From Panorpa germanica (taxonomy: Eukaryota > Arthropoda > Insecta > Mecoptera > Panorpidae), in assembly GCA_963678705.1 (NCBI GenBank), contig OY783203.1, forward strand, positions 42,718,347 through 42,782,346: DNA of 64,000 nt. The letters run 5' to 3'. The notes under the pieces were generated by a model, which saw only the letters and a program-made list of their open reading frames with translations, did no database searches and was not told the DNA's origin. Below are positions 6,489 to 35,094 of the stretch, piece by piece (positions within the stretch are counted from its first letter, which is position 1; every line of letters begins with the position of its first letter). The translations under genes were made by a program, and so were the position numbers.

Positions 6489-6540
6489 TTTTTTTACGCG
6501 ATTATTATATCATCTAACTCATTAGCTCCTGCTAATGAGT

Positions 6541-9333: not shown

Positions 9334-9521
9334 GGTCTTTCAATAAGAGCGATCATTTTATGGATATTTCAACACGAGCGGTCATTTTAAATCAATATAA
9401 AAATATTGTTATATTATTTATAATATATAAATTTATAATATAATAATTTAAAGCAATATTTCTGTGAAAAGTGACGCTCTTGTTGAAACATCCATAAAAT
9501 GACCGTTCTTGTTGAAAGATC
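9334..9521. mobile_element. MITE, 188 bp, long terminal inverted repeats
   Basis: The left end ggtctttcaataagagcgat and the right end (reverse complement gatctttcaacaagaacggt) are inverted repeats. Pairing continues about 50 bp inward on each side around an AT-rich centre, so the whole element can fold into a near-complete hairpin. Flanks on both sides read (at)n, consistent with a short TA-rich target duplication. There is no coding capacity, and the superfamily is not determined. Confidence 0.75.
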
Positions 9522-10960: not shown

Positions 10961-11021
10961 CTTATAAACTAATGAAATCATTTTCGGTTTTTCGATTTCA
11001 GAAAATCAAGTGATGAGTTAT

Positions 11022-12148: not shown

Positions 12149-12149
12149 G

Positions 12150-12212
12150 GTTCTAGTAACCAACTTTATCAATATATAGTAATTTATAGAAATTAAGACA
12201 TGGTTCGCAAGC
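12150..12212 (-). repeat. End fragment of an interspersed DNA-element family
   Basis: On the minus strand it reads gggcttgcgaaccatgtctt, then aatttctataaattactata and ttgataaag. The same end occurs at 29000-29060, 31860-31920 (-) and about 62395-62430 (+). It abuts the right end of the hAT element. It is duplicated at 20519-20581. Confidence 0.55.
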
Positions 12213-13081
12213 CCATTGTATTTAGTTGGAATTTAAAGTTTAAACTACAATCTTAAAAATATAATCAGTATATGTAAATAGTATTTGACCGTGTAGTATA
12301 TGACCGTGGCAATAAAGTAGGAAAGAAGAAATTACTGGAACATACAATTACCGTAGATTGGTGAATATAAGATGTTTGCTCAAATAATGATACGTTAGCA
12401 ATATGTAATATCTGTTGACTCACTGCTCAAACAGCATAATTATTTATAGAAATAAAACAACATGTACCAGTGTCCAGTACAATATTGACTATTGAGCACG
12501 TATTACCTTGTCCGGAAAGATGAGCAAATTTATAACCTTCAATGTAATTCACCTCTGCAGTGATTTTAACATGCGATAACATAATGCCAAACTGAGCGGC
12601 ATATATAAATTTTAATAAAAAATGATTTTAATAAAAATTTCACGTTTTTCATGGATTATATATATTTCATAGAATTAATGGTTTTAGAATTAACAGATTT
12701 TTTTGCATAAATTGAAGCTTTTACAATTTTACTAGTTTGTTTACAAAACTTTTCATCTATCGTTGAAACATAAAAAACAATTGATTTTTGTAAATTCATT
12801 AAATTCCTGAAAGTGAAAGTTTATCTCAACCAAAATAAATATTTTCAAATGTAAAAGAGGCAACTACTATATCTCCATTTAATTGTATAAAGTTGGAAAG
12901 AGAAATAATATTATGTAAAGATACTGACAATTTTTTTTCATAGGTGACATCTAACTGAAAACTGAGGCAAAAAGAATTAATTGATTTCTTGGCTGGAATT
13001 TCACCTAGCTATCTATACCATTTCACCAAAATGTTTACAGGGTAATACTTTTTTACAATATTGTATTGTTTAGTAAATATT

Positions 13082-13195
13082 AGACCGCTGCCTCATAAGT
13101 TTTGTGATTATGATCACACGCCTATTAATTCTGATAACTCCAAATCCAAGAAAATATAGCGCTGCTCCGGAGTCAAGAATAAATGCCACTATTAT
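13082..13195 (-). repeat. Decayed SINE copy
   Basis: Contains the SINE order in reverse: agaccgctgcctcataag, then a diverged aagaaaatatagcgctg-ccggag core, then aataaatgc. It is more diverged than the copies around the lipase gene. It is duplicated at 21451-21564. Confidence 0.5.
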
Positions 13196-14752
13196 TAACA
13201 AGTTTTTAAACCTGTTATATATTCATTATTTTTCTTGGTATTAATTTAAAATAAATATAAATATGATAACTGCACAAATGTGTAAACAATAATTTTTATA
13301 ATATTCCATTGTTTAAAATAATTAGTTATTAGCGACATCTGTTTGTCTATTTGTTAATATTGAAGCAATTATTTTATGACGGTAAGAAGAGTTCCTGTAT
13401 TTCGTAAATCCAGAATGTTAGTGTTTGAACTAAGTACAAATTTCGTGGATTAAAAATTTATCATTTACTCTAATGCAATGCATATTTGAAAGATATAGAA
13501 AGCAGAAGAAACCAATTATTAAAAATTTATTTATATTCTATTATGAATGGTATAGATTTGTAGCTAGTGCTTAAATATAATATTATATAATAACATTTTC
13601 ACTTTGTAATATCCTAAAACCATTTTAAAAATATAAAAAAATGTTTGTTTTCTTATTCACGTTAAATTTCGTTCGTTCGCATTTAATCAGTTCAATTCAG
13701 TTAGTCTACCTCACATGTAGAATCCAACCTACCATAATTAAATTAACAGAATTCTTTTTAAATATACACACAAGTTAGTTAAGAATATAAAGAAAGATAA
13801 TAATTAATGCTATTTAAATTATCATTTAAATATTATTGTTCTATTCAGTTCTATTAATCTTCTATGAGCTTTTGTAATATTTTCTATTTATAATTTTAAT
13901 ATTGGTAGCATATGAAAACATCTAGTATGCACCGTATGCACGTGATTGATTGTTTTAAATATTTAGTGCAAATTGAAATTTTAAATGTGTTTGCACTATT
14001 AAAAACAAAAATAAAACAAAGAAAGTAAGACCTTTAAGTTTATAACGTGAATAGTTTTTAATAATAAGAAATATAAATAATAATCTAAAACCCAAAAGGG
14101 GAATTTTAATAGCTTATTATAGTTATCGTTTTCTAGTGCTAATAATTATTTCAATTATTTTTTATAACTTACAAATGAATACGCAGATTGTCCGATAATA
14201 ATTCGTTATTGGACATGTCTTATAAAAGGTTCCTAAATAGGAATCCATCTTAACTAAAAGTGAATCTTAAAATAGAATTTAACCTGAAGGATGAAATCAA
14301 TTTTAAAAGCTTCATATCACGGTTTATTGAAGAAACTGTAAATATTTTGTGCTCACAACAAAACAGATTTATTCATAATTCGATTTATACTTAAGTATAA
14401 ATTTTATTGCTGCATGCATATAACTATCCATTGTGTCAGAGTTTTACTTCTCTTTTATTAATAGAAGAGATAATTCGTTTGTTTTATCTGCGAAGAAGCT
14501 TGGAGAAGCATTCCAATTTAATGTGATACTAAAACAAATGACAAATTAGATTAGTGACATTAACATAAATGGACGCGGTATGTAACTTAGACAGATCTAG
14601 TAAATTTAAATTTCTTAGTTTAAAGTTTTTTTTAAAAACAAAGTAAAATATAAAAATATAATTAAAAACGTGTGAATTTTATGAATTAAGTTTATTACTT
14701 GAGGGAACTAAAGAATGACTAACTAGGCGGAAGGAATCAATAATCATCACTA
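13196..14752. other. AT-rich upstream region of the truncated gene copy
   Basis: No exon or repeat is recognised. It holds the proximal upstream sequence of the CNOT9-like gene, matching 21565-23121 base for base as far as compared. Any promoter of that gene within this stretch therefore exists twice. Confidence 0.6.
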
Positions 14753-14983
14753 ATGATAATTCAAGTAAGCATGAGTTATCCGACCCGAGCATATTATCCA
14801 ACCATTGACAAGGATCGTGATTTGGTACAGCACTGGATTCTACAATTATTAACGTACTTTTTTTACGCGATTATTATATCATCTAACTCATTAGCTCCTG
14901 CTAATGAGTTCCATGATTCACTTGACACTTCTTGTTTATTAACCATTTTATTATTTATATGTACAGCAATTTCCTTGTCTTGA
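14753..14983 (+). pseudogene. Truncated CNOT9-like 5' end fused to transposon sequence
   Basis: The first 96 bp (14753-14848) equal codons 1-32 of the intact gene at 23122. At the duplication junction the frame runs into the start of the next repeat unit and stops after 44 more codons that have no relation to CNOT9. The putative product is 76 aa with only the first part of the first armadillo helix and a hydrophobic, meaningless tail, so it cannot fold as CNOT9. It keeps the same upstream sequence as the intact gene and may be transcribed if that sequence includes the promoter. Confidence 0.85.
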
Positions 14984-15413
14984 TCCCAAGGAGCTATTTC
15001 ATTTACTTCTTGATTTGAAGTTTCTATTGGCAAATTAGTTGCAGACAGCATCTTGCTTGTAGAGAAATAATTCTTGCAAAATTTTAACCGTTTATTTTTC
15101 CTTGTTTTGGAGAAAATTGACATTTTCGAAGTTACTACAAACACTGTTCATATGCAAGGAATCCATGATTCACTTGACACTTCTTGTTTATTAACCATTT
15201 TATTATTTATATGTACAGCAATTTCCTTGTCTTGATCCCAAGGAGCTATTTCATTTACTTCTTGATTTGAAGTTTCTATTGGCAAATTAGTTGCAGACAG
15301 CATCTTGCTTGTAGAGAAATAATTCTTGCAAAATTTTAACCGTTTATTTTTCCTTGTTTTGGAGAAAATTGACATTTTCGAAGTTACTACAAACACTGTT
15401 CATATGCAAGGAA
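14910..15413 (-). repeat. 252-bp direct repeat pair, second set
   Basis: Counterpart of 6541-7044 in copy 2 of the large duplication (14910-15161 and 15162-15413), with the same minus-strand open stretches. The short tandem repeat therefore predates the 8.4-kb duplication. Confidence 0.7.
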
Positions 15414-17702
15414 TGAATTTGAGTTGGGGGAATTCTGATGTCTGTAGTTTTTTGATTAATATATTAAGCGTCAATAAAATTGTATTTATTTAATTAGTTG
15501 TAATATTAATAAGCCCCCTGCAAAATTTAAACAGTTTATTTTTCCTTGTTTTAGAGAAAATTGACATTTGCCATGTGTGTTATAAACACTTTTTGACCGA
15601 TTCAAATATATGGTATTTTTACCATATTATTATTATTTATGTTTTTTTATTTTTTTTCGTACACATTGTAATGTATTTATTTAAATAGAAGACATAATAC
15701 ACTTGCAAATATTAAATCCAACAAGTATATAGACTTTTGCGAGAATGTCAGTTGGACACCACTAGTACTGCTCATTTTCGATATTTTCGCTGAAACTTTT
15801 CGCCAACTTCAGCGACGTCTTTTATACTGCATGTGACTTCACAACGCTTTTGACCCCTCTCATATTTGTCGCAATGTCTTGAAGACCCCCACTCACTTTG
15901 CATGTGACGTAATTTATGGATGGCCTCGTACATTAATAAGATAAAAAAATAAATCCAATAGGGTCAGATTTTCCTAATGGTATATGTAGGCTTGTATACT
16001 TAGTATCGAAACGTAAATAATAAAGTCTGTAAAACAGGAAGCACATTTACCATGGACCTTTATCCTCATTAAATAAACATTCGTTTTTCCATTATTACAG
16101 AGTCATATATGGTTTGCGAATAAAAGATGCGACTGCCAAATCATTTTAATTATATGAATAACCGCATGCAATATTTATATACATATAAATATTATGCGTG
16201 TGTGTGTGTTTTTGTCAGAAATAAGAACTGTATTTATAAGATCTTTTTCCGCATCAATGAAAATGTTGTAGTTATTTAACTTATCCTGTGTAATTAAAGA
16301 TAATGTTTACATAATAAATGATAAAGAGTGGTGTAAGAAGCTAGTCACTGCATCTAGTGGACATCCTCAACATGTATCATCCCCTAATTGGGTTACCACC
16401 AACGTGCCAACTTCATTGAATACGTTGTTTTGCACTAACAAAATTCATCATGAGAGCAAACTTTTACTTTAATTTGTATCGATACACCACTGTTCTTTCA
16501 TTCTCTTTCAGTGTATTCGTTTCGTCTCTTCCATGTATACGCTTGGTTAAAATTCGCTTAAATTCGACAGCAGTGTGAGAACTACGTAACGCCCATATTA
16601 GGACGGCTTTATCGCTTGCAGTTTGCGATGCTTCATTACATTTACAGGGTTCTGAAAGGAAAGCGTAGTAGCGCGTATACGTCCGGTGTATATTCGCTTA
16701 AATACGATTCCTTAGATTCATTAGTGCCTAATGCGAGTGGAACGTTACATGCGGAAAAAATATCTCTTAATTTATATCTTCTTCGAAACGGTCAATCAAT
16801 TTTAATTTTAAATTACGTCACACGCAAGGGGAAGAGTCAGAAGCGTTGTGACGTCTCATGTAATATAATATAGAAACTAAGTTAAAAAGAAAATTGTTAT
16901 GAAATTGTATTGTAAAGAAATTGTATTAATTTTAATGTATAAAGAGTTAATAAAAAAGGAGAGAGAATTTCCATGAGAACAAAAAAAAAGGAAATAATGT
17001 CATTTATTCTAAAAGCTGTACGTTACATACAAACGCAATAACACAATTTAATTTGTTTATTTACATATATTTTATAAATAAATAACAAATTTAAAGAAAA
17101 TTAAGTGAAATAAATAAAGGAAGTGGTTAATAAGCAACAAAGCAAAACAGATTACCTTGAAGCTTCAATAACAAAATAAAATTGATCGTTTCATTCGCAT
17201 TGTACATCACACATGATTGTGACATCGAAACAAAATTACATGTATTAAAAGTACAGTTCGTAAAAAAGTTTAATCACCATTTAGTAACAAACGTACTAAT
17301 GTTTCTCATTGAAACATGCTAGAGAAGTAACAAAACTCGTTAACAAAACTAAGGGACCTCATCGGTAGCGCAGTGGTTCTCACACAATTATAAAATCGAC
17401 ATGAACATACACTGACGAAGTACATGCAACGCCAAAAAAAAATGAACTGCAGAACTTACAGAACAAATGTCTGTAAGTCTGTAGTCTAAATATCTTAGAG
17501 TACAGCACAATAAACTACATGAAGAAACTGACTTACTGTGTATCAAAACTATAAAAATTCACGACAATTCTCATACACAAAATTTGGGACAATACACAAA
17601 CGACAGCCTACTCTTCAAGATCAAATGCCGTCTACCAAAAGACACAATCCTCTAGGCGCATGCTACACATAGCCATATACATATTTTTTTAAACACCTAT
17701 AT

Positions 17703-17890
17703 GGTCTTTCAATAAGAGCGATCATTTTATGGATATTTCAACACGAGCGGTCATTTTAAATCAATATAAAAATATTGTTATATTATTTATAATATATAAA
17801 TTTATAATATAATAATTTAAAGCAATATTTCTGTGAAAAGTGACGCTCTTGTTGAAACATCCATAAAATGACCGTTCTTGTTGAAAGATC
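17703..17890. mobile_element. MITE, 188 bp, second copy
   Basis: Same element as at 9334-9521, carried along in copy 2 of the large duplication. Confidence 0.75.
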
Positions 17891-18868
17891 ATATATATAA
17901 AATTCCACCATAGCCAAGATAACCACGTTTCCTACGCAAATACACAAGATAATATATATAAACTTGTCGACCCGTGTGTGGACGGGCTAAGCCATAGATA
18001 ACACTGAGGATTAATTTCGCGCGGTAAAAAACGCGAATCCTATAACACATGAAATCATATGAACATGCACACACCATCGATTTTAATATTGCGCGGAAAA
18101 ATATCTGCAGATTTCTAAAGAAATCACCCAGGCAAAGAGAGGTTTTTCTTCTTATCTTTTTTTGTCCAACATATAGTTAGTTGAATATGGACACACGCAC
18201 TACGGAATTAATTCTGCAAATACGTACGTTGTTGTCAGCGTATCTGTTTGGAAGCAGTATGCTACACGTCGCTGCATCTCTTTGAACATCTATTAACATG
18301 ATAAGATATATAAATACAACAGTCTAAAATCAGTTAAGTTTTAGTATACAGAATTAAAACCATGACGAAAGAAACCATTAGGAAATTGTAACGCAAGTTA
18401 TCAATACTTCATTGCATAACGCTTCAGCGCCATCCATTTTCAAGGGTAGTAGCTCAACTCAAAGGTGTTCAAATCATTATACAAACCTAAAAAATCGAAA
18501 TATTTATTTGCAATGATGCATCCTACTGTTTCAGAATGCTATAAAAGAATGTATCATAAGTAAAAGCAAAATGCAATTTTATAACAATAAACGTATGAAT
18601 TGTACATGAACTTTTTATAGCAATTATACATAATAGGGTATTGTATTCGTATTATGTTTAATATACAAAACAACATTGCTTTGCCTAGTATAACGTGACT
18701 GGTATGTGCTACGGGTATGGGTGGTATGTCGACATACGTGAGCAAATTCTAAAATATACTTAGAAATACTTTACAATGATCTCCTCATATTCGATACATT
18801 TGTAACTCACGTAAAAATACCCGATCATTTAAAAATAATGATTCAAATTACAGTGGCACCTTGAGTTA

Positions 18869-19329
18869 CGAACTTAAGGGGAGGGGGTAAGGTTTCAAAT
18901 TTTTTTTTCATTTTTTTTTATTTATTTGTATTATTGTAGAACATATTAAGTTTATTGTGTAAAAATTTGAAGTCGATTGGAGTAAAACTGTCGGAGATAT
19001 AGAGTTTTAAGTCTTCACCTCTCTGGTCTGCTTTCGTGTTACTTTGAAACTTTTAAATGCGGTGTCTCACACATTGATTTTTCAGAGTCGGTGCCCTCTC
19101 TAGCTCAAAATCTACTGGACCGATTCTTTTGAAACTTTGCACACTCTTTCTTTACATAAATGACGAGGTAACGCTGTCGAGTTGTTTTTAATTTTTTAAT
19201 TTTGACCTATTTTAAAATAACAAAGTTTATGATTTTTTTCATGAAAAATCGGTATTTTGACTTTTAAGTGCTGTAAAAAATTGAAAAATCAATAAAAAAA
19301 GGAAAACTCGACAGCGTTACCTGCAAAAA
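18869..19329 (+). repeat. Unclassified hairpin repeat, second copy
   Basis: Counterpart of 10500-10960 in duplication copy 2. The inverted arms lie at 19167-19183 and 19305-19321. Confidence 0.7.
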
Positions 19330-19390
19330 CTTATAAACTAATGAAATCATTTTCGGTTTTTCGATTTCAGAAAATCAAGTGATGAGTTAT

Positions 19391-20517
19391 CAGTGGCACC
19401 GGAATGTTACGTGGAAATTCGCAGTCAATGACTCATTTCTTGATATTTATTTATGAAAATTGCACAAAGTATTCTTTAAATGTCATTTTATCATATACTA
19501 ATTATATAAATAATTATATATTAACTGTGTCGTCAAAAATCATTATCGAAAATATGCTTTTTTTTATCGTTTTGGCCCTGGGCTACAGGGGCCACAAACG
19601 TGTGTAAGCAAAAATTCTTTCTTCACTATTTGAAATCATTAATACTGTTTCTAAAGCTCTACAGCATGAAATTAATGACTTACAGAAAGTTAGCAGTTTG
19701 CTAAGTAATCTTTTGAATAGACTGAGCAAAATAAGAGCTAGCAAAAGAGTAACAACTGTTTTCCAAAATAAAAGAAAGAAAATTTTTTTGATGAGCTATC
19801 AGAAGATGAGAGAATTTCAGACCCAGAATCAATGTACTATTGCTTAAGATTTCTGAGCCTCTGTGACCTAAGTAATATGTTCTAATTGCAACCTAAGAAA
19901 CTCATCTTTTTCAAACGAAATAATAAAAAAGTGAGTCGGAAAACTGTCTGCTAAATATAGTAAAGACAAGTCATTTGATCTTTATGAACAATTAATTGCT
20001 TTGAAAACATGCTTAAAATCTGAAATTCAGAAAATTCATTCCATTAGGGAACTCATGAAATTATTGCTGATAAAATTCAATAGCCTTGCATCCAGTTTTC
20101 CAGAGGTAAGCATGCTTTCTATTCCTGACCCTTCCGGTTACAACTGCAACAGCGGTTTTCGAAATTAAAACTGTTAAAAAATTATCTAAGGGCCTCTATG
20201 GGACAGGAAAGTCTATCAGAGTTGTCACTATTGTCTATAGAGGCAGAAAATTTAGAAAAACTGAAATCGTCTTGAGCTATGAATGATTTAATAAATAAGT
20301 TCGCCGAACAAAAGGCAAGAAAAGTGTATATTTGATTTAAATTGTTTGGTTAGCTTAGTTTCTAGAAGTATTAATTGTAAGTAATAACGTATAATATATA
20401 TATAATTAGTTTAATTCAATGCGAGCATTCTTGATCCTTTTGAGAAAAGTCTGTATCCATCATTAGGGCCCACCAACAAATTTTGATAGGGTCCGTCTAA
20501 GGCACGTTAAGCCACTG
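19391..20517 (+). mobile_element. Dead hAT transposon, second copy
   Basis: Same decayed element as at 11022-12148, in duplication copy 2, with the same frameshifts. The lesions therefore predate the duplication. Confidence 0.75.
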
Positions 20518-23121
20518 GGTTCTAGTAACCAACTTTATCAATATATAGTAATTTATAGAAATTAAGACATGGTTCGCAAGCCCATTGTATTTAGTTGGAA
20601 TTTAAAGTTTAAACTACAATCTTAAAAATATAATCAGTATATGTAAATAGTATTTGACCGTGTAGTATATGACCGTGGCAATAAAGTAGGAAAGAAGAAA
20701 TTACTGGAACATACAATTACCGTAGATTGGTGAATATAAGATGTTTGCTCAAATAATGATACGTTAGCAATATGTAATATCTGTTGACTCACTGCTCAAA
20801 CAGCATAATTATTTATAGAAATAAAACAACATGTACCAGTGTCCAGTACAATATTGACTATTGAGCACGTATTACCTTGTCCGGAAAGATGAGCAAATTT
20901 ATAACCTTCAATGTAATTCACCTCTGCAGTGATTTTAACATGCGATAACATAATGCCAAACTGAGCGGCATATATAAATTTTAATAAAAAATGATTTTAA
21001 TAAAAATTTCACGTTTTTCATGGATTATATATATTTCATAGAATTAATGGTTTTAGAATTAACAGATTTTTTTGCATAAATTGAAGCTTTTACAATTTTA
21101 CTAGTTTGTTTACAAAACTTTTCATCTATCGTTGAAACATAAAAAACAATTGATTTTTGTAAATTCATTAAATTCCTGAAAGTGAAAGTTTATCTCAACC
21201 AAAATAAATATTTTCAAATGTAAAAGAGGCAACTACTATATCTCCATTTAATTGTATAAAGTTGGAAAGAGAAATAATATTATGTAAAGATACTGACAAT
21301 TTTTTTTCATAGGTGACATCTAACTGAAAACTGAGGCAAAAAGAATTAATTGATTTCTTGGCTGGAATTTCACCTAGCTATCTATACCATTTCACCAAAA
21401 TGTTTACAGGGTAATACTTTTTTACAATATTGTATTGTTTAGTAAATATTAGACCGCTGCCTCATAAGTTTTGTGATTATGATCACACGCCTATTAATTC
21501 TGATAACTCCAAATCCAAGAAAATATAGCGCTGCTCCGGAGTCAAGAATAAATGCCACTATTATTAACAAGTTTTTAAACCTGTTATATATTCATTATTT
21601 TTCTTGGTATTAATTTAAAATAAATATAAATATGATAACTGCACAAATGTGTAAACAATAATTTTTATAATATTCCATTGTTTAAAATAATTAGTTATTA
21701 GCGACATCTGTTTGTCTATTTGTTAATATTGAAGCAATTATTTTATGACGGTAAGAAGAGTTCCTGTATTTCGTAAATCCAGAATGTTAGTGTTTGAACT
21801 AAGTACAAATTTCGTGGATTAAAAATTTATCATTTACTCTAATGCAATGCATATTTGAAAGATATAGAAAGCAGAAGAAACCAATTATTAAAAATTTATT
21901 TATATTCTATTATGAATGGTATAGATTTGTAGCTAGTGCTTAAATATAATATTATATAATAACATTTTCACTTTGTAATATCCTAAAACCATTTTAAAAA
22001 TATAAAAAAATGTTTGTTTTCTTATTCACGTTAAATTTCGTTCGTTCGCATTTAATCAGTTCAATTCAGTTAGTCTACCTCACATGTAGAATCCAACCTA
22101 CCATAATTAAATTAACAGAATTCTTTTTAAATATACACACAAGTTAGTTAAGAATATAAAGAAAGATAATAATTAATGCTATTTAAATTATCATTTAAAT
22201 ATTATTGTTCTATTCAGTTCTATTAATCTTCTATGAGCTTTTGTAATATTTTCTATTTATAATTTTAATATTGGTAGCATATGAAAACATCTAGTATGCA
22301 CCGTATGCACGTGATTGATTGTTTTAAATATTTAGTGCAAATTGAAATTTTAAATGTGTTTGCACTATTAAAAACAAAAATAAAACAAAGAAAGTAAGAC
22401 CTTTAAGTTTATAACGTGAATAGTTTTTAATAATAAGAAATATAAATAATAATCTAAAACCCAAAAGGGGAATTTTAATAGCTTATTATAGTTATCGTTT
22501 TCTAGTGCTAATAATTATTTCAATTATTTTTTATAACTTACAAATGAATACGCAGATTGTCCGATAATAATTCGTTATTGGACATGTCTTATAAAAGGTT
22601 CCTAAATAGGAATCCATCTTAACTAAAAGTGAATCTTAAAATAGAATTTAACCTGAAGGATGAAATCAATTTTAAAAGCTTCATATCACGGTTTATTGAA
22701 GAAACTGTAAATATTTTGTGCTCACAACAAAACAGATTTATTCATAATTCGATTTATACTTAAGTATAAATTTTATTGCTGCATGCATATAACTATCCAT
22801 TGTGTCAGAGTTTTACTTCTCTTTTATTAATAGAAGAGATAATTCGTTTGTTTTATCTGCGAAGAAGCTTGGAGAAGCATTCCAATTTAATGTGATACTA
22901 AAACAAATGACAAATTAGATTAGTGACATTAACATAAATGGACGCGGTATGTAACTTAGACAGATCTAGTAAATTTAAATTTCTTAGTTTAAAGTTTTTT
23001 TTAAAAACAAAGTAAAATATAAAAATATAATTAAAAACGTGTGAATTTTATGAATTAAGTTTATTACTTGAGGGAACTAAAGAATGACTAACTAGGCGGA
23101 AGGAATCAATAATCATCACTA

Positions 23122-26100
23122 ATGATAATTCAAGTAAGCATGAGTTATCCGACCCGAGCATATTATCCAACCATTGACAAGGATCGTGATTTGGTACAGC
23201 ACTGGATTCTACAATTAGCTAATCCAGAACGACGTGAAGACGCGCTGTACGAGTTGGTAAAAATGAGAGAATATATGGCAGAATTAGCCCCCATGTTGTG
23301 GTTCAGTTTCGGAACTACTGCGGTTCTTGTACATGAACTTATAGAAACATATCCCGTAATAAATCCACCTGCTTTAACTACCCGTCAATCGAATAGGATT
23401 TGTAATGCCCTTGCACTCTTTCAGTGCATGGCTGCTCATCAAGTTACACGGCCTCCATTTATGTCTGCAGAAATTGTTATGTTCATGCTGCCACTACTGA
23501 AGTCTACCATGACCACGCAGCCATTTGAGTATTTAAGACTAACTACACTCGGTGTGATAGGAGCTCTCATAAAGAGTGATGAGGACGGCATACTAAATTT
23601 CTTTCTAGGTACTGATATTGTTCCATTGTGTTTAAAAGTTATGGAGATTGGCCTAGATCTTAGTAAAACTGTGGCAATTTACATAATACAAAGGCTTCTA
23701 AGCAGAGACAATGGTTTGGCATATATGTGCGAAACTCATGATCGATTTATGCACGTATGTATGGTTTTAGGAAAAATGGTAATAGGATTAGTGAGAACAC
23801 CTTGTACACGAACATTAAAACTTGTAGCTCTATGTTATCTGCGATTGTCAGAAGACATGAGAGCACGAGAGGCTTTACGATTTTGTCTTCCACATCAATT
23901 ACGTAATTCAACATTTGCAGAAGCGCATTTAGAGGATCCGATTATTAAGTATAGTGTACTACAATTAATTAGGAATTTAAATACAGGACCATTTTATACA
24001 CTTCCGCCAGTAGAAGAAAATAGCTTTGATTCAAGTGATCATCTTATGCCATCGGCTCGTAAGGCAAGAAAACTTGCAGAAGCAGAACTGAATGATTCAG
24101 AAAGTGAATCGAATATATCAGAAGAAATTTCGGAACAGCAAACTTCCGAACAAACTAGACCTTCGTCAGGAAGGTACTATTATTCAAATAGGCCCCGAAG
24201 TCCTCTACTCCCGCTAAACCTGCAAGGTGTACCAAGTTATGAACCACCAATGAATATTATGTATCCTAATGCAATGCCAGGTATGCCGCTAAATAATCAT
24301 GTTCAACCAAATACATTTTTTCCTCGTTGTGTACCACCGCCGTTACCGCCAGGAGAGAATATCTACACTCGCGACACGATTTATCCTTATCCTACTTTTC
24401 ATTTACAAGGGCTTTCAAAACATGTACTACCACCTGATATCCCCCAAGATACAGATTTTACAAGTTCGTCTTGTGCAAAGTCTTCTAATCAAGATAAAAG
24501 TGAAACGTCTTCGGAATGTCAAAATTTTAATTCTTCCCTCCCAAGTTCATTAACAGAGGTTGCGTCATCGCCAGAGCTTAAACTAAATCTGTCAAATCCA
24601 CCGCCACCCATATTATATCCGCCACCAACTATGTTAAATCAACAAAAAAAATTGGACGGTGAACAACCACGCCTTTCCTCTAGAATTCAAATACAAAATG
24701 AATTATATCGGCCGCCTATAATGTCAACTCACCAACAAGAATCAAGATATCGCTTGTCACCAAGATTAGATCAGCCAAAAGAATTATTTCCGAATCATAT
24801 ACTGCATACTACAAATGTGTGTCCAGTTTCAAAGAAGTGGAATAACTCGGAGCAGACTCAATTAAGTACAATACCAGAAGATACACCACAATTATTAAAC
24901 AATGGAACTTTGCCAAAGTCTCCTCCTGTACGCCTGCCTTCCATGAAATACCCTCCTCCCATAATCCATAATTCTCTAAATCGCCCACCTCCATCGATGG
25001 CGCATCTATTACAGCCGCCAATGCAAATATCCAATGGTCCAATGTGTCCTACGCGTGCAGAGCAGCACCCTCCTTCGCAAAATGTGCCACGATATCTTCC
25101 ACCGGTGCAATATGCTTCAACGCCGAATATTCGAATCCAAAATGATTTATTGAGTCGCACACCACCTCAGCAACAAACAACGATACAACAATCAAGTTCC
25201 CAAGAACATTTATTAATGTGTACTCCACCACCTATACAATATACATTATTACGGCATCAACCCACACAACCGCAAATACTAATGCGCAATCCAAGTTCAC
25301 AGCAACAAGTACGGAACATATCACCGCAACAACAAGCAAAAATGCAGCAACTTCCTCAGCAACAAATACTTGCCCCACAAGCACATTCGACTGTTCAAAA
25401 TATATCACCACATCAAGAATCACCAACACAAACTGTCAGTCTGGAACAGAATTCTATAACTCATCAAACTACTACACAGGAAAATTTAATTTCTCAAAAT
25501 GCATCGCCGCATCAGGTTTCTACAACACATACTTCACCTCCACCTACAACAGTAAAGAACGTATCACCGAAGAAAATTACGATTCTTCAACCATCACCAC
25601 AACAACGTGTAACAGTACGAAATGTGTCACCACAACACTCATCAGCACGGACTTTATCTCCACAACAAAGTTCATCAGCACGGCTTTCCAATTCACCACG
25701 ACGTTCCACGACACGCAATGCATCTCCTCAGAAACATTCCATGGCAAATCATGGTTCTCCACAACATTCAAAAATACATCTTCCGTCACCAAAATATCAG
25801 TCAAAGCAGAAGTCTTCCGGTCAATATGAGACACAAATAAGTCGATCTGCAATGGTCCTTAACCATCTTCAAGGTATACAGAGTAAACCCCCACAACGTT
25901 TATATCCAGAACATGGACCAAATCCCATATCCTGTTCTCAAGAGCAGGTATCAAGTCGCGTTCCCACAACCACAAACAATCAAGTAAAAGCTAATCGACC
26001 AACATCTGTTACCATTAGCAACGGACCTGTATCACTTAACCCGTCAATTGTTCGTCCAGTTGTAACGCCAGAAGTTTTACCATTGTCAACAAAAGAGAAA

Positions 26101-27003
26101 ACTAAACCTGTTGCAAAGAAGTCATTAGCAAATATTGTGAACACAATGAGTCAACTAGGAAAGTTGCAAAACCAGAACCAAAACCCTAATTCTATGAAGA
26201 AACAGACGAATCAACATGATGAAAATAATAAATTGACTGGAAAACATGATTCAACAGGAAACGATATATATAGACAAGTAAATGGAATAACACCAAAGAA
26301 ATCAAATATCAATCACATATCACCTAGGCCAAAACTAGAGAGGCGAGCGCCCAATCAAACACTACATACGAAGTATTCGCAAGGCCGCTCCCAAACAAAC
26401 TTAAATTCATCGCGACAATGGACGAATAATACAAATTCATTGTCTAATAATCAAGGACAAAATCGCTTAAACAACAATCGTCCTCAATCGAGTTCAAATC
26501 AAAATCGGCAGTGGAATAATCACTCGTCGCAGAATCAAAATGGACGTAATTCAAATAGATCGAATTCTGGTAAGGCACTTCAATCGAACCAATCGAAAGG
26601 TAAGGCCTCCTCTCATACTAATTTGAATCATCAAAAAGGAGAGGAAAATATGTTGCATGGTCATAAGAATCACCGTCACAGTCAAATGGACAAAATGAAC
26701 AAAATGGACAAAATGGACAAAATGAACCAAAATGGACAAAACGGTCTAAGTACTAAGAGTTATAAAGAGAATATTGTGACACAAGTAGAGCAGTCAATAA
26801 GTTGTCTAGCGGAGCAAACAAATCAGGCAGAGGCGGGTTGGCAGGCAGTTGGACGGGCTGGGGCTATAAATCACGGGCGACGAAATCGCTGTAACAACAA
26901 CAATAACAACAACAACAACAACAACAACAACTCACAGCAGTCACATAGAAGCCGTACAGCTGTGAGTCGTTCTCAGCCCTGCACTAGCCGAGCAACGCGT
27001 TAA
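23122..27003 (+). CDS. CNOT9/Rcd-1-like protein with ~1,000-residue low-complexity tail
   Basis: CNOT9 (Rcd-1, RQCD1) is an armadillo-repeat subunit of the CCR4-NOT deadenylase that docks on CNOT1 and binds Trp motifs of silencing factors. Residues ~18-288 follow CNOT9 end to end without gaps: LAPMLWFSFGTTAVL, SNRICNALALFQC, PFEYLRLTTLGVIGALIK, DNGLAYMCETHDRF, MRAREALRFCLP and QLIRNLN. The family normally ends there, at about 300 aa. Here a disordered tail runs to residue 1293. It has an acidic Ser/Glu patch (~324-345), Pro-rich sequence with PPPP-type runs (~350-720), a Ser-Pro repeat zone (~730-890), an Asn/Gln/Ser-rich zone, a Lys-Met-Asp repeat (~1189-1204) and 13 Asn (1258-1270). The whole domain sits on one exon. 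Start: the first in-frame Met after a stop; Met7 is an alternative. A 3' intron at 26962 may replace the last 13 residues. It is divergent from standard CNOT9, so probably a paralogue, possibly a retrocopy. Confidence 0.9.
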   Translation: MIIQVSMSYPTRAYYPTIDKDRDLVQHWILQLANPERREDALYELVKMREYMAELAPMLWFSFGTTAVLVHELIETYPVINPPALTTRQSNRICNALALFQCMAAHQVTRPPFMSAEIVMFMLPLLKSTMTTQPFEYLRLTTLGVIGALIKSDEDGILNFFLGTDIVPLCLKVMEIGLDLSKTVAIYIIQRLLSRDNGLAYMCETHDRFMHVCMVLGKMVIGLVRTPCTRTLKLVALCYLRLSEDMRAREALRFCLPHQLRNSTFAEAHLEDPIIKYSVLQLIRNLNTGPFYTLPPVEENSFDSSDHLMPSARKARKLAEAELNDSESESNISEEISEQQTSEQTRPSSGRYYYSNRPRSPLLPLNLQGVPSYEPPMNIMYPNAMPGMPLNNHVQPNTFFPRCVPPPLPPGENIYTRDTIYPYPTFHLQGLSKHVLPPDIPQDTDFTSSSCAKSSNQDKSETSSECQNFNSSLPSSLTEVASSPELKLNLSNPPPPILYPPPTMLNQQKKLDGEQPRLSSRIQIQNELYRPPIMSTHQQESRYRLSPRLDQPKELFPNHILHTTNVCPVSKKWNNSEQTQLSTIPEDTPQLLNNGTLPKSPPVRLPSMKYPPPIIHNSLNRPPPSMAHLLQPPMQISNGPMCPTRAEQHPPSQNVPRYLPPVQYASTPNIRIQNDLLSRTPPQQQTTIQQSSSQEHLLMCTPPPIQYTLLRHQPTQPQILMRNPSSQQQVRNISPQQQAKMQQLPQQQILAPQAHSTVQNISPHQESPTQTVSLEQNSITHQTTTQENLISQNASPHQVSTTHTSPPPTTVKNVSPKKITILQPSPQQRVTVRNVSPQHSSARTLSPQQSSSARLSNSPRRSTTRNASPQKHSMANHGSPQHSKIHLPSPKYQSKQKSSGQYETQISRSAMVLNHLQGIQSKPPQRLYPEHGPNPISCSQEQVSSRVPTTTNNQVKANRPTSVTISNGPVSLNPSIVRPVVTPEVLPLSTKEKTKPVAKKSLANIVNTMSQLGKLQNQNQNPNSMKKQTNQHDENNKLTGKHDSTGNDIYRQVNGITPKKSNINHISPRPKLERRAPNQTLHTKYSQGRSQTNLNSSRQWTNNTNSLSNNQGQNRLNNNRPQSSSNQNRQWNNHSSQNQNGRNSNRSNSGKALQSNQSKGKASSHTNLNHQKGEENMLHGHKNHRHSQMDKMNKMDKMDKMNQNGQNGLSTKSYKENIVTQVEQSISCLAEQTNQAEAGWQAVGRAGAINHGRRNRCNNNNNNNNNNNNNSQQSHRSRTAVSRSQPCTSRATR

Positions 27004-27100
27004 TGTCACTTCAGGTATTTTAGTAAACCTCTTGGTTGTAATGTTTCTCTACATTTAACTACTAGCACTAGCACAACTAATTGAAACATATCTTTTATAG
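26962..27100 (+). other. Candidate terminal intron of the CNOT9-like gene
   Basis: A strong donor (gct|gtgagt) lies exactly on a codon boundary after codon 1280. A good acceptor (tcttttatag) precedes 27101. Splicing would replace the last residues and the stop at 27001 with a frame reading VLEMDLQSSSPHSEQEG. That frame then either runs to a stop near 27190 or splices again at a possible donor at 27152 (gga|gtaaat). The Ser/Glu-rich reading resembles coding sequence, but this rests on splice signals only. Confidence 0.45.
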
Positions 27101-28267
27101 GTTCTGGAAATGGACTTACAATCATCAAGTCCACATTCTGAGCAAGAAGGAGTAAATTTTCTTTGTTTATTCTTATTTTATTATATATTTATTTAATTTA
27201 AACTTTTTATTGTCGATCAAATAGTAAAACGTAACTTAGATGAAGAAAATTTTATCTGTCTTGCGTATTCTAGTTAGAATTGATCGTTAATAAAAATAAT
27301 ATATATGTTAAATCTTAAAAATTGTATATTTTTGAAAATAATTTTTTTCTATTCTCAATTATAAATGTAATATATGAACTAATGGATAATTAAATCACTT
27401 GATTTAAAAATAAATGAAATGAAAATATTTTGTGGTTAAAATATATTTATTTGCATGATCAGAATAAAACTTAATTTTACACAGATAAATTATTTCATTT
27501 ATTAAAACTGATGTTCTAAGTTAATTTATAAGAAAATATAATATGAAGATTATATAAATAAATTTCATAAGATCCTATTGATTGCTTAATCTCTTTATTC
27601 ATTGTTATAACGTTTTTAATTAAGAAAAAATGTTAATGTTTTTTTTTTTTTTTAAGTTTCGGTAGAGTGTAATTATTTTTGTGCTCTATTACAAAATCTT
27701 CCGGCTTCTAAGTTTTCATCGTTTTCTATTTAAAAATATCGCGTTTATTGTGACGTAAAATAAATGTAAAAAGAAGATTGTTTTTTCATTCTTCTTTTAT
27801 ATACCTTGTCTATTTTGAAACTTCTAAGCTCAGAAGAGTCTGCCAGTTATACTGTATTCGTATTCTATACGAATGGTTAAAGTGATTATACGTACACGAA
27901 CCACGAATGTTAGCGTGTACGAATACAGAATGTTTGATCTGTGTGCACGAATATTTTCCTGTGAGTTTGTGTATGTATATTCGCTTTAACTATTCGAACT
28001 AGAAGACGCATGAGTGGACCCAGCATTACAATTCTTAATTTCCTTTTCAAAGATATTCTGGTTGCGTTTCGTAGGCGCAATATTAAAAGAACTGCTAGAA
28101 ATTAGAACAAATGTTACTTACTTTCATATTAAAAAAAATAATTGGTAAAGCTTGCCTATATTTACTATAATATATCCAAAATAGAATATAATACGTAAAT
28201 AATACGGAAATTTTATATTTATATAATGTATATAAATATATTTTAAAAATTGCTTTGCATAAAAACT
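27004..28267. other. Intergenic region with a small palindrome
   Basis: Downstream of the CNOT9-like gene, with an AATAAA signal near 27291. At 27852-27928 the 11-bp arms ctgtattcgta and tacgaatacag enclose a nested inverted pair (cgtacacg at 27890-27897, cgtgtacg at 27914-27921). This may be a small MITE. No gene is seen. Confidence 0.5.
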
Positions 28268-28760
28268 TTTCACCTACTCCTCTCGCAGTTACTATCAACT
28301 CCCAAAAAATACTATATTCCAACACAGCAAAATAACTTGGCATTACGCTAGGCGCGAAACTCAAGTGGAAGGAGCATATTAAGATAACAAGAGAACGGCT
28401 AAATATTAAATGCAGGAAAATTCACTGGCTAATGGGAAAACATTCTTACTTTACAATGCATAGCAAACTGTTATTATATAAGCAAATACTGAAACCCATT
28501 TGGACTTATGGTATACAACACTAGGGTTGTACCAAGAAAACAAATATAACAAACATTAGGAATGATAATCCACACCGTGATTTAAAGATGCCCACCGTAG
28601 ACAAAGAAGTCAGGAAGTCAGGAAGGCAGGAAGGATGCAAGCAAATATCTATTGCGCCTGCTTGCTCAATAACAGAGAAAATCTGTGCAGATTGAAGAGG
28701 ACCAAGCCGCTACACTTTACCCTGTGATTCTGCTGCTATAAACCGCGCAAGTGTTTTCTT
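28268..28760 (+). mobile_element. Jockey-type LINE ORF2 3' remnant
   Basis: Translation with interruptions gives the region after the reverse transcriptase of Jockey-clade elements: VTINSQKILYSNTAK, then a stop, LGITLGAKLKWKEHIK, LLLYKQILKPIWTYGIQ, another stop, and NPHRDLKMPTVDKEVRK. The order and spacing fit the conserved YLG-T-D-L-W--HI and PIWTYGIQLWG blocks. At least two stops, a deletion between the last blocks and loss of everything upstream make it dead. It points to a possible mobilising LINE lineage for this genome's SINEs, though that link is inference. Confidence 0.85.
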
Positions 28761-30386: not shown

Positions 30387-33300
30387 ATGGCATTGAGAGA
30401 TCCCAATATGATTATCAGGCGCTCTGCTTTATGTTATTTTTGTAACGAAACTATTCCGGAACCACTACTACAGGTAATTATATTTTAAATCATTTGAATT
30501 TATTATAAATACATATGTATTTGCAGGATCGTCTTAGAAATGATAGAATTGGGTTAACAGTATCTAGTTGTAGCCGCTTCCTCCAAAACCTTACGTCTGA
30601 ATTTATTGCCAGACATGCTCATGGCGATTTATACATCAGATTCCATTCTATCTAGTATAAATTTCTGATCCATTCTATTCTACGTAACGTAAAAGTTCAG
30701 TAGCGTCGGTAAAGCCCCAATTGGGTCTATCTGCTGATGACCATCTTTTTATGCAAAAGTCCTATATTATAATGTTCCAACTGTATGTTTATATGTTTAT
30801 TTTCTTATATGTTTGTTAGTGATTTTTATATGGTGGCTCGAAAACGGCTATATGCATCTCTTTTAAAATTTCCTATTTCGTTGAGCAAAAAGTTTTAAGA
30901 CTTTTGGCGTCCTCGGATTTTCTTCTGAATTTCTTGGAAACCCGTAATTTTGAAAAACTCATCTAAAAGATCATCTAAATTAAAATTTGCCCAGTACTAT
31001 AACACGCCACTGGCATCATAATTATATTTGTTTTAACGTATTAATTACTCTACATGAACTAAATATGGTGTCTTTTTGTAGGATCACGTGAAGCAATGCG
31101 GTTTGGTACTGGAACCTTGCCCGCAAAAATGTGCGGTTTGGATCCAACGGAGACATCGAGAAGTACATGCAGCAGAATGTCCCAGAATGTTGAAACCAAG
31201 ACCTGCAGCTCTTGTAGTAGCTAATCCCCAGAGAAACCAACAAAACCCAACACTAGTTAAGACAATTCCACCTACGACAGATTCACCAACGGGATCCGTA
31301 TCGAGTCGAGTAGAAAAACCAACGCGAGATATCGCAGAATCTTTGGCATACCTGCATCAAAAAGTTTCATCACTTAGGTATTTACTAACAATAGTTTTAT
31401 AGAGAGACTAGGGAATTAAACAAATATAATGGGCTTGTAAACTCTTTTTTTTTTAATTTTCGATTGAAATGAATTTAAAAAAAGCGCTAAATTTTTAACG
31501 GTAAAAATAAATTTTAAATAAAAAACATTTATTTAAAATTTATTTTTTTAAATATTCTAAAGTTGACTGAGTTAGTTACACATATATCAAATTTAAATTT
31601 CAGTTTTGTCGCATGTTTTAGATTTGCTTTTTCACAACCTTCGTATTATAATACTTCATGGGATACACAATCCAGTTGTTAGTAGAAAATACTGCATCAC
31701 ACCCCACAGTAGTCGGATGTGACGTACTATGCATTGGAATGTTCTTTAACGTTGGATCTCTTTAATACTTAAAGAGACAAAATGACTTTTTAAATTCTTA
31801 ATATATTCTAAAATAAAAGGAGGTTTTAAAAGAAAATTGTACATTTGAGGTTCTGGTAGTCGACTTTATCAATATAAAGTACAGTTTTATAGAAATTAAG
31901 TTATGGTTCACAAGTCTATTGTGAGCTTTCTCGTTCTATTCAAAAATAGATTTTGATTTTTGCCTTTTTTGTTCTTCCATAAAAAAACAATTTTATTTTC
32001 TTGTTTTGTTTATCTGTTTGCGTCTTACAACCATTTTTTTCTATTTTCGAGAATTTTTTTCAATAAATGTAATTTTAAACTTTTAAAAAATGTCATAGTA
32101 TTAAATGAAAATGATAAAAAACGTATTTTTTCTTACGAAATGTTGGCTCCAGCCGTGAACCCAAGCTTCTATTGTATTAACATTTAATTGGTAAATTTAA
32201 TGCTTGTTTGTATTTTGCAGATCCAGTTTAAATGAAGAATTTAGTCACAGAGTAAAATTAATGACAGATTTGGAACTGTTGCAGACCAAATATAAACAAT
32301 CGGAAGAATGGAATTCAAAAATTATGGAAATTATAGCGGCTTTTAGAAAAACTTTAGATACAATAATAAGAGAAAACATTGAAGCTAGAACCAAAACGAT
32401 GAACGAATTTGAAAAATCATATATGAAACAAGAGGTATGTTTTGTCTTTGGCAAAGAATTTGAGCTAAAATATAAAACATTGTATTTGTTTACTCACATA
32501 TAGACTTTGCCCTTATATATGATAAAATTGTGTACTACATACTTTTATTCTAAAATTAAGACAAAATGCTAATTAATGTTTTATGTGTTGCATCTGCATT
32601 TTATTAGGCGTTTTATGATTGGAAAATGGAACTGGACATGCGGGTGGACGCACTAAGAAGTAGTATCATACAAGAAGAAAATCAACGTAGTCATATCGAA
32701 ATTGTTCTTAATCAGCAAGACACCAAATTACGACAGTTAAAGAAATTAGGTACGTACATATTAATTTAAATGCTAATATAAATTGCACCCAAATACTTTG
32801 TCTTGAAGAGTCCAAAACAATGCAGGAGTAACCGTATCTTTTGGGGCCCATTCATAGACCTTGGCCCAGGGCCCCCTCTATCGATGTAAAACGAATAGCC
32901 TCACAATATTCAGAATATTATTATTACAGAATCAGACATGGATTTAGTACGGCAGGCCATTCTACTGGAACAAACTGAAAGAGAAAAGGCAAGTCATATT
33001 TGGAACACAGAGTTAGAAGAATTCAAGGAATATCTTCAGCAAGAAAATGTAATGATAAGTGCAGTATGGAAAGATCAATTATCTGAAATCTCATCCCTTA
33101 AATTAAATATTGAAGAACGAGTGACAGCCACAAACGAATTAAAAGCAAAACACAATATTTTAGATTTTGAAATTAAATCTATGAAGAACATAGTTAATGA
33201 AGATTCAGACAAACTTGCATCTGTAGTGAAAGAACTCGAAATAGTAAAATTAAGCACTGCACAAATGAAACAAGATTTGACAGATTTTGAAAAATCTGTA

Positions 33301-35094
33301 AATCATCATAAATATAATAGTTCCATAGAAAACACCGAAGGTAAAATATCTTTTATGATCAACTATTTAGTTGTTATGTTACTAATATCAAAATGATTGC
33401 AGGTCACCTTCTTTGGAGGATTGATAATTTTGAATCTAATATGCAGAAAGCAAAAGATGAAGACGTTACAATGCACAGCCCTGTGTTTTGCAGTCACCGT
33501 CATGGATATTTATTGAAGGTATTTAAAGAAACAATTCATTTTATAGTATAGGAAGAAAAGGAAAAGAAGAAGGCATATGGGGTAGAGAGTAGTATAAGTA
33601 AATTGGTATATACAATCAATTTCATTACAATGTAACTGCAATGTACAATGCAACTTGTAGAGTACTTGCTTTTGAATTATTCCAAATTGCTTTACGAAAA
33701 ATAATAAGAAATTACTACTTGACACAAAAATGTCGAGTAAATTAGTAAAATTTATCAAAGTTATTAAACATATAAAACTATTAACGACATCTATCTTAAA
33801 GTAGCAGTAAATATACTATTTGTTCATTATTTGTCCAACAGATGACATTATATTTTCATTGCCAAGATAGTTTGCAATCTGATTTGCACCTTAAATAGCT
33901 GATAAATGAAATTAATAGTTAGCAGCATGTTTTTTAGACCGCATTTATATATTTAATTAAGTGTTTAATATAGCAAGAGGGGATTGTAAACATTCATGGA
34001 CATTTTCATCAATGCCTATTATTTTAAATCTATCCAATTTCTTAAAGGGATTTAGACCGCTACACATTAAATTTATATACTATTTATTTAACTAATTACT
34101 TTTTAAACTTCTTAACAAGTTTTCATTGTAGGTGTATATTTTAAACAAATTTATGTAGCATAATAAATATATAATTTGGCTATTGTTTTTATTGTGTAAG
34201 AAAATGACTTGTTTTGAAGGTGGAGCTAAATTTGAACGGAATTGGTAAATGGCGAGGAAGGCATATGACAATATGTCTTCAGGTTGTTGCAGGTCCGTAT
34301 GATCCGTTGCTTAAATGGCCTTGTTCATTACCGGCGGAAATAATCTTAAAAGAACTAGTTCAAGATACTGAGGTGAGTATCAAACATTTCAATTGCTAGC
34401 GGTATTTTTATCAATTGGGCTGTGAACCACTTTTTGTTTATTGGGCATGTAGAATATTTGTTGAAAGAATCGTCAAAAAAAAAAAAATTTTGACAGAGAT
34501 ATATTAAATGAATCATTTGATGCAATAATAATTACTAAATAATTTCTATAAAATAATTTCAAAATTAAAAATTAAACAAAACCTAGTAATATTTAATCTA
34601 AAAGTATTTTAATTTATTGTCTTATAGCTATTTGAAAAGCAATAATCCTTAAAAAGGTGTTCTTAAGATTGTATAATCCTTAAAAAGAGCTTATTCAGAA
34701 CTTTTACTTTTGTTTTGTTAAATAAACCTTCATATATAACTGTGTTAAGTGGATACATATAAATATCCTTTAATGCTGTTTAAAATGAAATGGTACACAG
34801 CCCGATTTCAATTTAGTGTTGATATTTACCTTTCATAATAATACTTCAACGTTAAATATTTATGCTTATATATATTTAATATTGTTCCAATTTTATTTTC
34901 AGCCAAAAGATATAGTAAAAAATATAGTTGCTAAACGCAAAGTTGGCGATGTTCTAACAAGTGTAGAAGAAAAAGGTGGACAACATATATTCATTCCTCA
35001 CGCTAGTATGAAGAAAGGATCTTATGTAAAAAATGACATTATGTTTATAGAAGTGAAAATTAACCGCAGTGAATTACAATTAAATGAAATATAA
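30387..35094 (+). CDS. TRAF-like signalling adaptor (zinc fingers, coiled coil, MATH/TRAF-C)
   Basis: Eight exons join in phase to 536 aa: 30387-30473, 31082-31377, 32221-32434, 32608-32749, 32930-33340, 33403-33518, 34220-34372, 34903-35094. All have GT-AG borders. TRAFs couple receptors to kinase and ubiquitin signalling in the cytoplasm and trimerise through a coiled coil and TRAF-C. The N-terminus has C-x2-C-x11-H-x3-C (CYFCNETIPEPLLQDHVKQC), split by intron 1, then a C-x3-C...H-x4-C finger (CPQKCAVW...HAAEC). Exons 3-5 are strongly coiled-coil. From exon 6 a MATH domain follows: GHLLWRIDNFE, GYLLKVELNLNGIGKWRG, GPYDPLLKWPC, SYVKNDIMFIEVKI. No RING precedes the fingers, as in insect Traf-like proteins rather than TRAF6. 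An AATAAA overlaps the stop codon (35093-35098). A 5' coding exon upstream cannot be excluded. Confidence 0.88.
30524..30656 (+). other. Exon-like open stretch in TRAF-like intron 1
   Basis: A good acceptor (tatttgcag) is followed by 43 open codons in the phase left by exon 1 (starting DRLRNDRIGLT), ending in a stop. A possible donor after 33 nt (aca|gtatct) would make an 11-residue cassette. Including it would break the C-x2-C...H-x3-C finger that direct splicing forms, so I left it out of the gene model. Confidence 0.2.
30780..30965 (+). repeat. Unclassified interspersed repeat in TRAF-like intron 1
   Basis: Shares the order ctcgaaaacggct, then agacttttggcgtcctcgg, then tttcttggaaacccgtaatt with 62460-62760 (+) and 48395-48720 (-). 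In the 62-kb copy it is contiguous with the hairpin repeat family, so the two may be parts of one element. Confidence 0.6.
31860..31920 (-). repeat. DNA-element end fragment in TRAF-like intron 2
   Basis: The minus strand reads cttgtgaaccataacttaat followed by tttctataaaactgtac and ttgataaag. This is the same family as the element at 29000-29696. Confidence 0.55.
32846..32885. repeat. Possible hAT end fragment in TRAF-like intron 5
   Basis: A GC-rich islet (ggggcccattcatagacc, then ggcccagggccccctc) in an AT-rich intron. It resembles the GGCCC-rich subterminal sequence of the hAT element at 11200-12148. Too short to classify firmly. Confidence 0.35.

What the first reader, a model, noticed from the sequence alone, without database searches (positions are those of the whole stretch)
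23122..27003. CNOT9 armadillo domain fused to a giant disordered tail on one exon
Seen: residues ~18-288 align with CNOT9 throughout, and the frame then stays open for another ~1,000 Pro/Gln/Ser/Asn-rich codons with no intron in the domain. Known: CNOT9 is a ~300-residue, highly conserved CCR4-NOT subunit. Inference: this is a divergent paralogue, perhaps a retrocopy, that gained a tail able to recruit partners or form condensates, making it a lineage-specific CCR4-NOT variant.
Basis: partly seen in the sequence, partly recalled or inferred. Interest (0 to 1): 0.8.

Follow-up and report, generated by a model that had tools for sequence, protein, structure and literature searches.

The report
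Scorpionfly CNOT9 retrogene with giant tail
A scorpionfly carries, beside its normal gene for an mRNA-decay subunit called CNOT9, a second, old, intron-free copy that kept the protein fold but gained a tail of about a thousand probably unstructured residues, a new twist on a kind of gene copying already known from fruit flies.

Summary
Window 23122-27003 (+) is one 1,293-codon ORF. Residues 21-287 are an intact CNOT9 armadillo domain, followed by about 1,000 S/P/N/Q-rich codons whose codon usage matches the domain. The genome is Panorpa germanica (Mecoptera): two contig lengths equal published scaffold lengths. The window lies on X. A canonical seven-exon CNOT9, 239 of 267 residues identical to human, sits on chromosome 7. 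The window copy has none of its six introns, so it is most simply a retrocopy. It is old: synonymous sites are saturated, yet there is no indel or stop across the domain, dN is 0.33, and 153 of 267 residues match the parent. The peptide-docking groove and W pockets are mostly kept (20 of 25; background 146 of 239), while the NOT1-docking segment looks remodelled, weakly supported. The tail matched nothing else in the genome and holds a worn decapeptide SP array. Drosophila Zeus and Poseidon are known Caf40 retrogenes, so the kind is known; the giant tail and X location are new to me. No transcript data or related species could be tested. Whether it joins CCR4-NOT is open.

The parts
23122..27003 (+). 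Intronless ORF of 1,293 codons plus stop: CNOT9-like domain and giant tail (alternative start at 23140, codon 7)
23182..23982 (+). Residues 21-287: Rcd1/CNOT9 armadillo domain, no gaps against human CNOT9
   Evidence: predicted fold closest to human CNOT9
23983..27000 (+). Residues 288-1293: low-complexity tail rich in S, P, N and Q, net charge +47, no other match in the genome
   Evidence: composition and charge counted on residues 291-1293; the genome search used residues 313-1293
25504..25791 (+). Worn array of ten SP dipeptides spaced 10-12 residues apart (residues 795-890)
   Evidence: not seen as a DNA tandem repeat
26119..26169 (+). Candidate amphipathic helix KSLANIVNTMSQLGKLQ (residues 1000-1016), a possible groove-binding motif (inference)
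   Evidence: only a weak excess over shuffles (63 of 1000 reach the observed two matches)
26770..26817 (+). Second candidate amphipathic stretch, residues 1217-1232
26893..26931 (+). Poly-Asn run, about (AAC)13 with one AAT, residues 1258-1270
27289..27294 (+). First AATAAA/ATTAAA-type poly(A) signal downstream of the stop
   Evidence: nine such hexamers between 27289 and 28128, as expected in A+T-rich DNA
14753..14848 (+). Exact second copy of the first 96 nt of the ORF, made by a tandem duplication that ends inside the gene; it runs into a short chimeric frame 14744-14980

Best explanation
The ORF is an old, functional retrogene of CNOT9 on the X chromosome of Panorpa germanica. Shown: an intron-free CNOT9 copy on another chromosome than the canonical gene, with intact domain and frame, followed by about 1,000 in-frame codons of coding-type composition. 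Inferred: a CNOT9 mRNA was copied back, and the gene later gained its tail by extension past the old stop and by repeat expansion. Inferred mechanism: the protein is still a peptide-docking hub. Its concave groove and W pockets bind the short motifs by which RNA-binding proteins engage CNOT9. The basic tail, rich in proline-directed SP/TP sites, adds many weak contacts in cis (to RNA, to partners, or to its own groove). Because the NOT1-docking segment looks remodelled, I think it slightly more likely that it acts as an alternative or competing receptor only weakly tied to CCR4-NOT, as Zeus does, than as a stoichiometric subunit. Germline use is likely by analogy only.
Against: There are no RNA data. 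The groove result is borderline (12 of 15 for the Roquin list alone, p 0.098; W pockets alone 3 of 4, p 0.49), several overlapping lists were tried, and the NOT1-site result is not significant by itself (p 0.165) and depends on a residue mapping. With the four human positions I recalled (58, 60, 64, 71), 2 of 4 are kept and a third is conservative (V71I). The region 119-130 is as diverged as 65-73. Low model confidence at the NOT1 segment may only reflect a thin alignment. The tail lacks the exact Roquin-type CBM spacing, the NOT4-type LGFDP motif, and PAM2-like and RGG motifs, and has a single GW. Disorder was inferred from composition, not predicted. Selection on the tail cannot be measured without a second species.
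Confidence: 0.5

Rival explanations
1. It remains a true CCR4-NOT subunit: it binds NOT1 in place of CNOT9 (as Poseidon does in Drosophila) and the tail brings extra RNAs or partners to the deadenylase.
For: F60 and A64 are kept and V71I is conservative; no indels in the domain; there is one CNOT1 gene that could be shared; Poseidon kept NOT1 binding and repression (PMC8774992 discussion).
Against: H58F, A65V, I73T and 7 of 9 changes across human residues 65-73, the segment where engineered changes abolish NOT1 binding in Arabidopsis NOT9B.
Confidence: 0.35
2. Only the armadillo domain is translated: transcripts end or splice near codon 290 and the tail frame is untranslated or belongs to something else.
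For: Homology to CNOT9 stops at about residue 290; the tail matches nothing else in the genome.
Against: There is no stop between domain and tail; tail codon usage and third-position composition match the domain in frame only; 461 of 9,027 single-base changes in the tail would be nonsense, so even 0.05 neutral substitutions per site would leave a 0.0005 chance of no stop, counting base changes alone.
Confidence: 0.07
3. A pseudogene with a frame that is open by accident.
For: No expression data; it lies beside repeats and a very recent tandem duplication.
Against: Saturated synonymous sites with no stop or indel over 267 domain codons and dN 0.33; shuffles never exceeded 283 open codons for the tail.
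Confidence: 0.04
4. Not a retrocopy but an ancient DNA-level duplicate that later lost its introns, possibly older than insects.
For: The age cannot be bounded from above; the share of derived residues with the parent (7) against human (3) is not decisive; no poly(A) or target-site trace was looked for.
Against: Loss of all six introns one by one is less simple than retrotransposition; location on a different chromosome.
Confidence: 0.12

Closest known systems
CNOT9 / Caf40 / Rcd1 (Pfam PF04078), CCR4-NOT subunit
   Same: Whole armadillo domain, no indels, 149 of 267 residues identical to human; groove and W pockets mostly kept
   Different: 93 of 239 otherwise shared residues changed, NOT1 segment remodelled, about 1,000-residue tail, no introns; the canonical gene is also present
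Zeus (CG9573, Rcd-1r) of Drosophila melanogaster
   Same: Retrocopy of the same parent gene, fast protein change; NOT1 recruitment almost lost in Zeus (PMC8774992, introduction and discussion)
   Different: Zeus is about 5 My old and autosomal from an X-linked parent; here the copy is old and X-linked from an autosomal parent, with a giant tail (that Zeus has no such tail is recalled, not from a call)
Poseidon of Drosophila
   Same: A second Caf40 retroduplicate; keeps NOT1 binding and repression (PMC8774992 discussion)
   Different: No tail known to me (recalled); orthology not testable here
Arabidopsis NOT9A/B/C
   Same: CNOT9 paralogues with diverged roles; NOT9C did not interact with NOT1 (PMC8009681, passages)
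   Different: Plant paralogues; nothing in the passages read mentions a tail
Disordered CCR4-NOT adaptors such as Puf3, Roquin, NOT4, Unkempt
   Same: Disordered regions with short motifs and, for Puf3, phosphorylation tuning (PMC12819147, passages)
   Different: There the disorder sits on the binding partner; here it is fused to the receptor itself

Membership tests
CNOT9 / Rcd1 protein family (PF04078) | Full-length Rcd1 domain above the curated cut-off | tested here: met
   320.3 bits against 37.7, profile 1-260 of 260
CNOT9 / Rcd1 protein family (PF04078) | Six-repeat armadillo fold like solved CNOT9 | tested here: met
CCR4-NOT subunit CNOT9 | CBM-binding concave groove | tested here: inconclusive
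   12 of 15 Roquin-contact residues identical; 17 of 21 with NOT4 contacts added; Y134, G141 and V181 kept. Sequence level only
CCR4-NOT subunit CNOT9 | Two W-binding pockets | tested here: inconclusive
   R205, H208 and R244 kept, Y203H
CCR4-NOT subunit CNOT9 | Binds the NOT1 CN9BD | tested here: inconclusive
   1 of 4 mapped site residues kept (2 of 4 with recalled positions); needs a pulldown
Retrogene | Introns of the parent absent, parent elsewhere | tested here: met
   0 of 6 introns; parent on C7
Retrogene | Poly(A) remnant and target-site duplication | not tested
   Expected to be erased at this divergence
Zeus or Poseidon orthologue | Shared origin with the Drosophila retrogenes | not testable with these tools
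   No insect collection; the Zeus origin at about 5 My inside Drosophila (PMC8774992) speaks against Zeus

The most novel reading that the evidence does not exclude
A CNOT9 receptor that left the deadenylase. It keeps the groove and pockets that read adaptor motifs, has lost firm NOT1 docking, and has acquired its own thousand-residue multivalent tail. It would then act as an X-linked, phosphorylation-tunable competitor or condensate scaffold that diverts RNA-binding proteins and their mRNAs away from CCR4-NOT.
Probability: 0.2. Interest if true: 0.75.

Novelty: new variant of a known kind. Interest (0 to 1): 0.5.

Why it matters
CNOT9 is a highly conserved subunit of the mRNA-decay machinery, and in the passages read here the disorder lies on its partners. 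A natural, long-constrained copy that carries its own large disordered tail and a changed NOT1 face would separate motif reading from deadenylase docking. With Zeus and Poseidon it suggests that insects have more than once turned CNOT9 retrocopies into new regulators, here in the direction autosome to X.

Tried and rejected
Rejected: the idea that the tailed gene is the only CNOT9; a chance ORF; a visible origin of the tail from the parent's 3' flank (blastn of window 23992-27600 against L008 at E up to 1 gave seven short hits, best a 17-bp match; at this divergence a true origin could be invisible); a tail family elsewhere in the genome (only itself; the tool warns that only the best candidates are scored). 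Homologues in public collections: none in viral contigs or genome contigs. These hold viral and prokaryotic contigs, so the absence says nothing about insects.

Motif scans of the protein: no PAM2-like, RGG, PPxY, (F/W)(D/E)F, LxxLL or basic-cluster match; both Y4L matches lie inside the domain; five loose proline matches ([FWYL]P..P type) and one GW in the tail. No LGFDP-type match. The exact Roquin CBM spacing is absent from the tail, and a looser pattern gave 2 matches against 0.43 expected (63 of 1000 shuffles reach 2).

Literature: ten searches. No listing that I saw named a CNOT9 paralogue with such a tail; only open-licence papers are held, and the listing showed 12 of 398. Seen: PMC8774992 abstract, introduction, discussion and passages; passages only of PMC5303829, PMC11009413, PMC12819147, PMC8270118, PMC6362812, PMC8009681; PMC11464959 abstract and passages. 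The two 2014 papers that define the CNOT9-NOT1 interface are not held.

Not done: a fold of residues 7-1031 to see whether the tail docks in its own groove (alignment A2); a genome search for further copies of the 5' flank; any disorder predictor.

Full report
What is there. Window 23122-27003 on the + strand is a single ORF of 1,293 codons; the next longest frame in the window has 325. Residues 28-286 match Pfam Rcd1 over its whole length at 1.1e-95, and residues 21-287 match human CNOT9 at 1.1e-97. The rest, about 1,000 residues, is S, P, N and Q rich (453 of the 1,003 residues from 291 on), with 4 Trp, 8 Phe and a net charge of +47, and has no Pfam match at E up to 1. I call it disordered from its composition; no predictor was run.

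Where it is. The genome G000 (464,208,970 bases, 249 contigs) is Panorpa germanica, assembly ijPanGerm4.1. The contig lengths 47,989,005 (C21) and 22,111,551 (C7) equal the longest and N50 scaffolds in PMC11464959, listed there as X (47.99 Mb) and chromosome 7 (22.11 Mb) (passages). The published total is 464,228,243 bases in 254 scaffolds, so the copy held here is slightly smaller. The species is a scorpionfly, order Mecoptera. The window therefore lies on X, and the sequenced animal was male.

The parent. A Pfam Rcd1 search of the whole genome gave seven matches at two loci. One is this ORF, uninterrupted. The other six are exon-sized pieces on chromosome 7, which I spliced by eye and script into seven exons with GT-AG borders and a 298-residue CNOT9; it agrees with human CNOT9 at 239 of 267 positions. 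The window copy has none of the six introns. One CNOT1 CN9BD match exists, on C20. A retrocopy is the simplest reading; poly(A) and target-site traces were not looked for.

Age and constraint. Against the parent, the domain has 153 of 267 identical residues and no gaps. Synonymous differences are saturated (pS 0.79, Nei-Gojobori in my script), dN is 0.33, and 11 of 59 four-fold sites agree where 18 are expected by chance. An unconstrained copy of that age would not be expected to keep 267 codons free of stops and indels. The window copy changed 93 of the 239 residues that parent and human share; the parent changed 3 where the window copy still agrees with human. So the copy evolved fast but under constraint. 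Shared residues (7 with the parent against human, 3 with human against the parent) lean towards an origin after the split from vertebrates but do not prove it.

Is the tail coding? In 500 dinucleotide shuffles of the tail the longest open run averaged 117 codons with a maximum of 283; the real one is 1,003. Codon usage in frame correlates 0.85 with the domain, and 0.42 and 0.46 in the shifted frames; GC3 is 0.28 in the tail, 0.30 in the domain and 0.27 in the parent. Of the 9,027 single-base changes possible in the tail, 461 give stops. The tail (residues 313-1293) matched nothing else in the genome. It holds ten SP dipeptides at residues 795-889 with intervals 10, 10, 10, 11, 10, 12, 10, 11, 10; 5,000 shuffles gave at most 3 successive intervals of 9-12, and 20,000 random placements of 18 SPs at most 4. 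The underlying DNA is no longer a detectable tandem repeat, and the S and P codons vary, so this is probably an old expansion. By contrast the (AAC)13 run and about six 9-bp units at 26684-26741 are cleaner repeats.

Docking surfaces. Contact residues were taken from passages of PMC5303829 and PMC6362812 (groove) and PMC11009413 (W pockets). Kept: 12 of 15 Roquin contacts, 17 of 21 with NOT4 contacts added, 3 of 4 W-pocket residues, and 20 of 25 together, against 146 of 239 overall; hypergeometric upper tails 0.098, 0.039, 0.49 and 0.03, not corrected for the overlapping lists. For NOT1 binding, PMC8009681 reports that Arabidopsis NOT9B H70A V72A A77Y V85Y no longer binds NOT1. With the offset of 12 that fits R217 and R256 of the W-pocket mutant of the same paper to human R205 and R244, these are human H58, F60, A65 and I73; the window copy has F, F, V and T, 1 of 4 kept (p 0.165). 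With the positions I recall for human (58, 60, 64, 71), 2 of 4 are kept. Human residues 65-73 keep 2 of 9, tied with windows in 119-130 for the lowest. This leans towards a changed NOT1 face but is weak.

Mechanism. Not9 is described as a hub for disordered adaptor regions, and adaptor binding to Ccr4-Not as multivalent and tuned by phosphorylation (PMC12819147, passages). In this gene a long, basic, SP-rich tail is fused to the hub itself. I think the protein still reads adaptor motifs, with the tail adding contacts in cis, and that its tie to NOT1 is weakened (inference). The close rival is a NOT1-bound variant subunit. Drosophila shows both outcomes: of the two Caf40 retroduplicates, Poseidon keeps NOT1 binding and Zeus almost lost it (PMC8774992 discussion, reporting another study that I did not see). 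Germline use is analogy with Zeus only.

Novelty. Retroduplication of CNOT9 with rapid change is known from Drosophila. What I found no mention of, in the listings of ten searches of an open-licence library, is a CNOT9 copy with a giant disordered tail, or one moved from an autosome to X. I therefore call it a new variant of a known kind.

Surroundings. The 5' flank and first 96 nt of the ORF are the end of an 8,372-bp direct duplication with no mismatch (6477-14848 and 14846-23217, overlap 3 bp). The upstream copy of the ORF start runs into unrelated sequence (frame 14744-14980). Since the animal was male, two X alleles should not explain it, but an assembly error could. It leaves the full ORF intact.

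Noticed in passing
6477-14848 and 14846-23217: Perfect (0 mismatches, 0 gaps) 8,372-bp direct tandem duplication with a 3-bp overlap at the junction, ending inside the CNOT9-like ORF; a 253-bp perfect tandem duplication is nested in it. Very recent, or an assembly error.
   Followed up: partly
862-6511: Satellite-like array of related units, many pairwise matches at about 88-96% identity, directly upstream of the tandem duplication.
   Followed up: no
G000, e.g. C5:24090676-24091020 and C5:24194329-24194673: Of 20 COX1 matches in the genome 19 lie off the mitochondrial contig, most of them fragments: likely numts, including a pair about 104 kb apart with the same score.
   Followed up: no
58106-58669 (-): 188-codon frame with PNMA/Retrotrans_gag similarity (PF14893, 9.8e-07).
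   Followed up: no
28336-28521 (+): Short frame that looks by eye like the end of a jockey-type LINE reverse transcriptase, about 1.3 kb downstream of the ORF; no Pfam match.
   Followed up: no
42078-46777 (-): A run of long minus-strand frames, one of which (46017-46373) has a Myb/SANT match (PF15963, 4.5e-06, below its cut-off); five others scanned gave none. Probably Bdp1 of TFIIIB (name inferred).
   Followed up: no
54321-56226 (+): Lipase-type gene: Abhydro_lipase 1.8e-14 and Abhydrolase_1 2.7e-09 on separate frames; may reach 63.3 kb by eye.
   Followed up: no
31082-35091 (+): Possible TRAF/MATH-type gene: weak MATH match at 34789-35091 (8.6e-04, below cut-off) and a coiled-coil frame at 32899-33393; the frame 31082-31399 had no match.
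   Followed up: no
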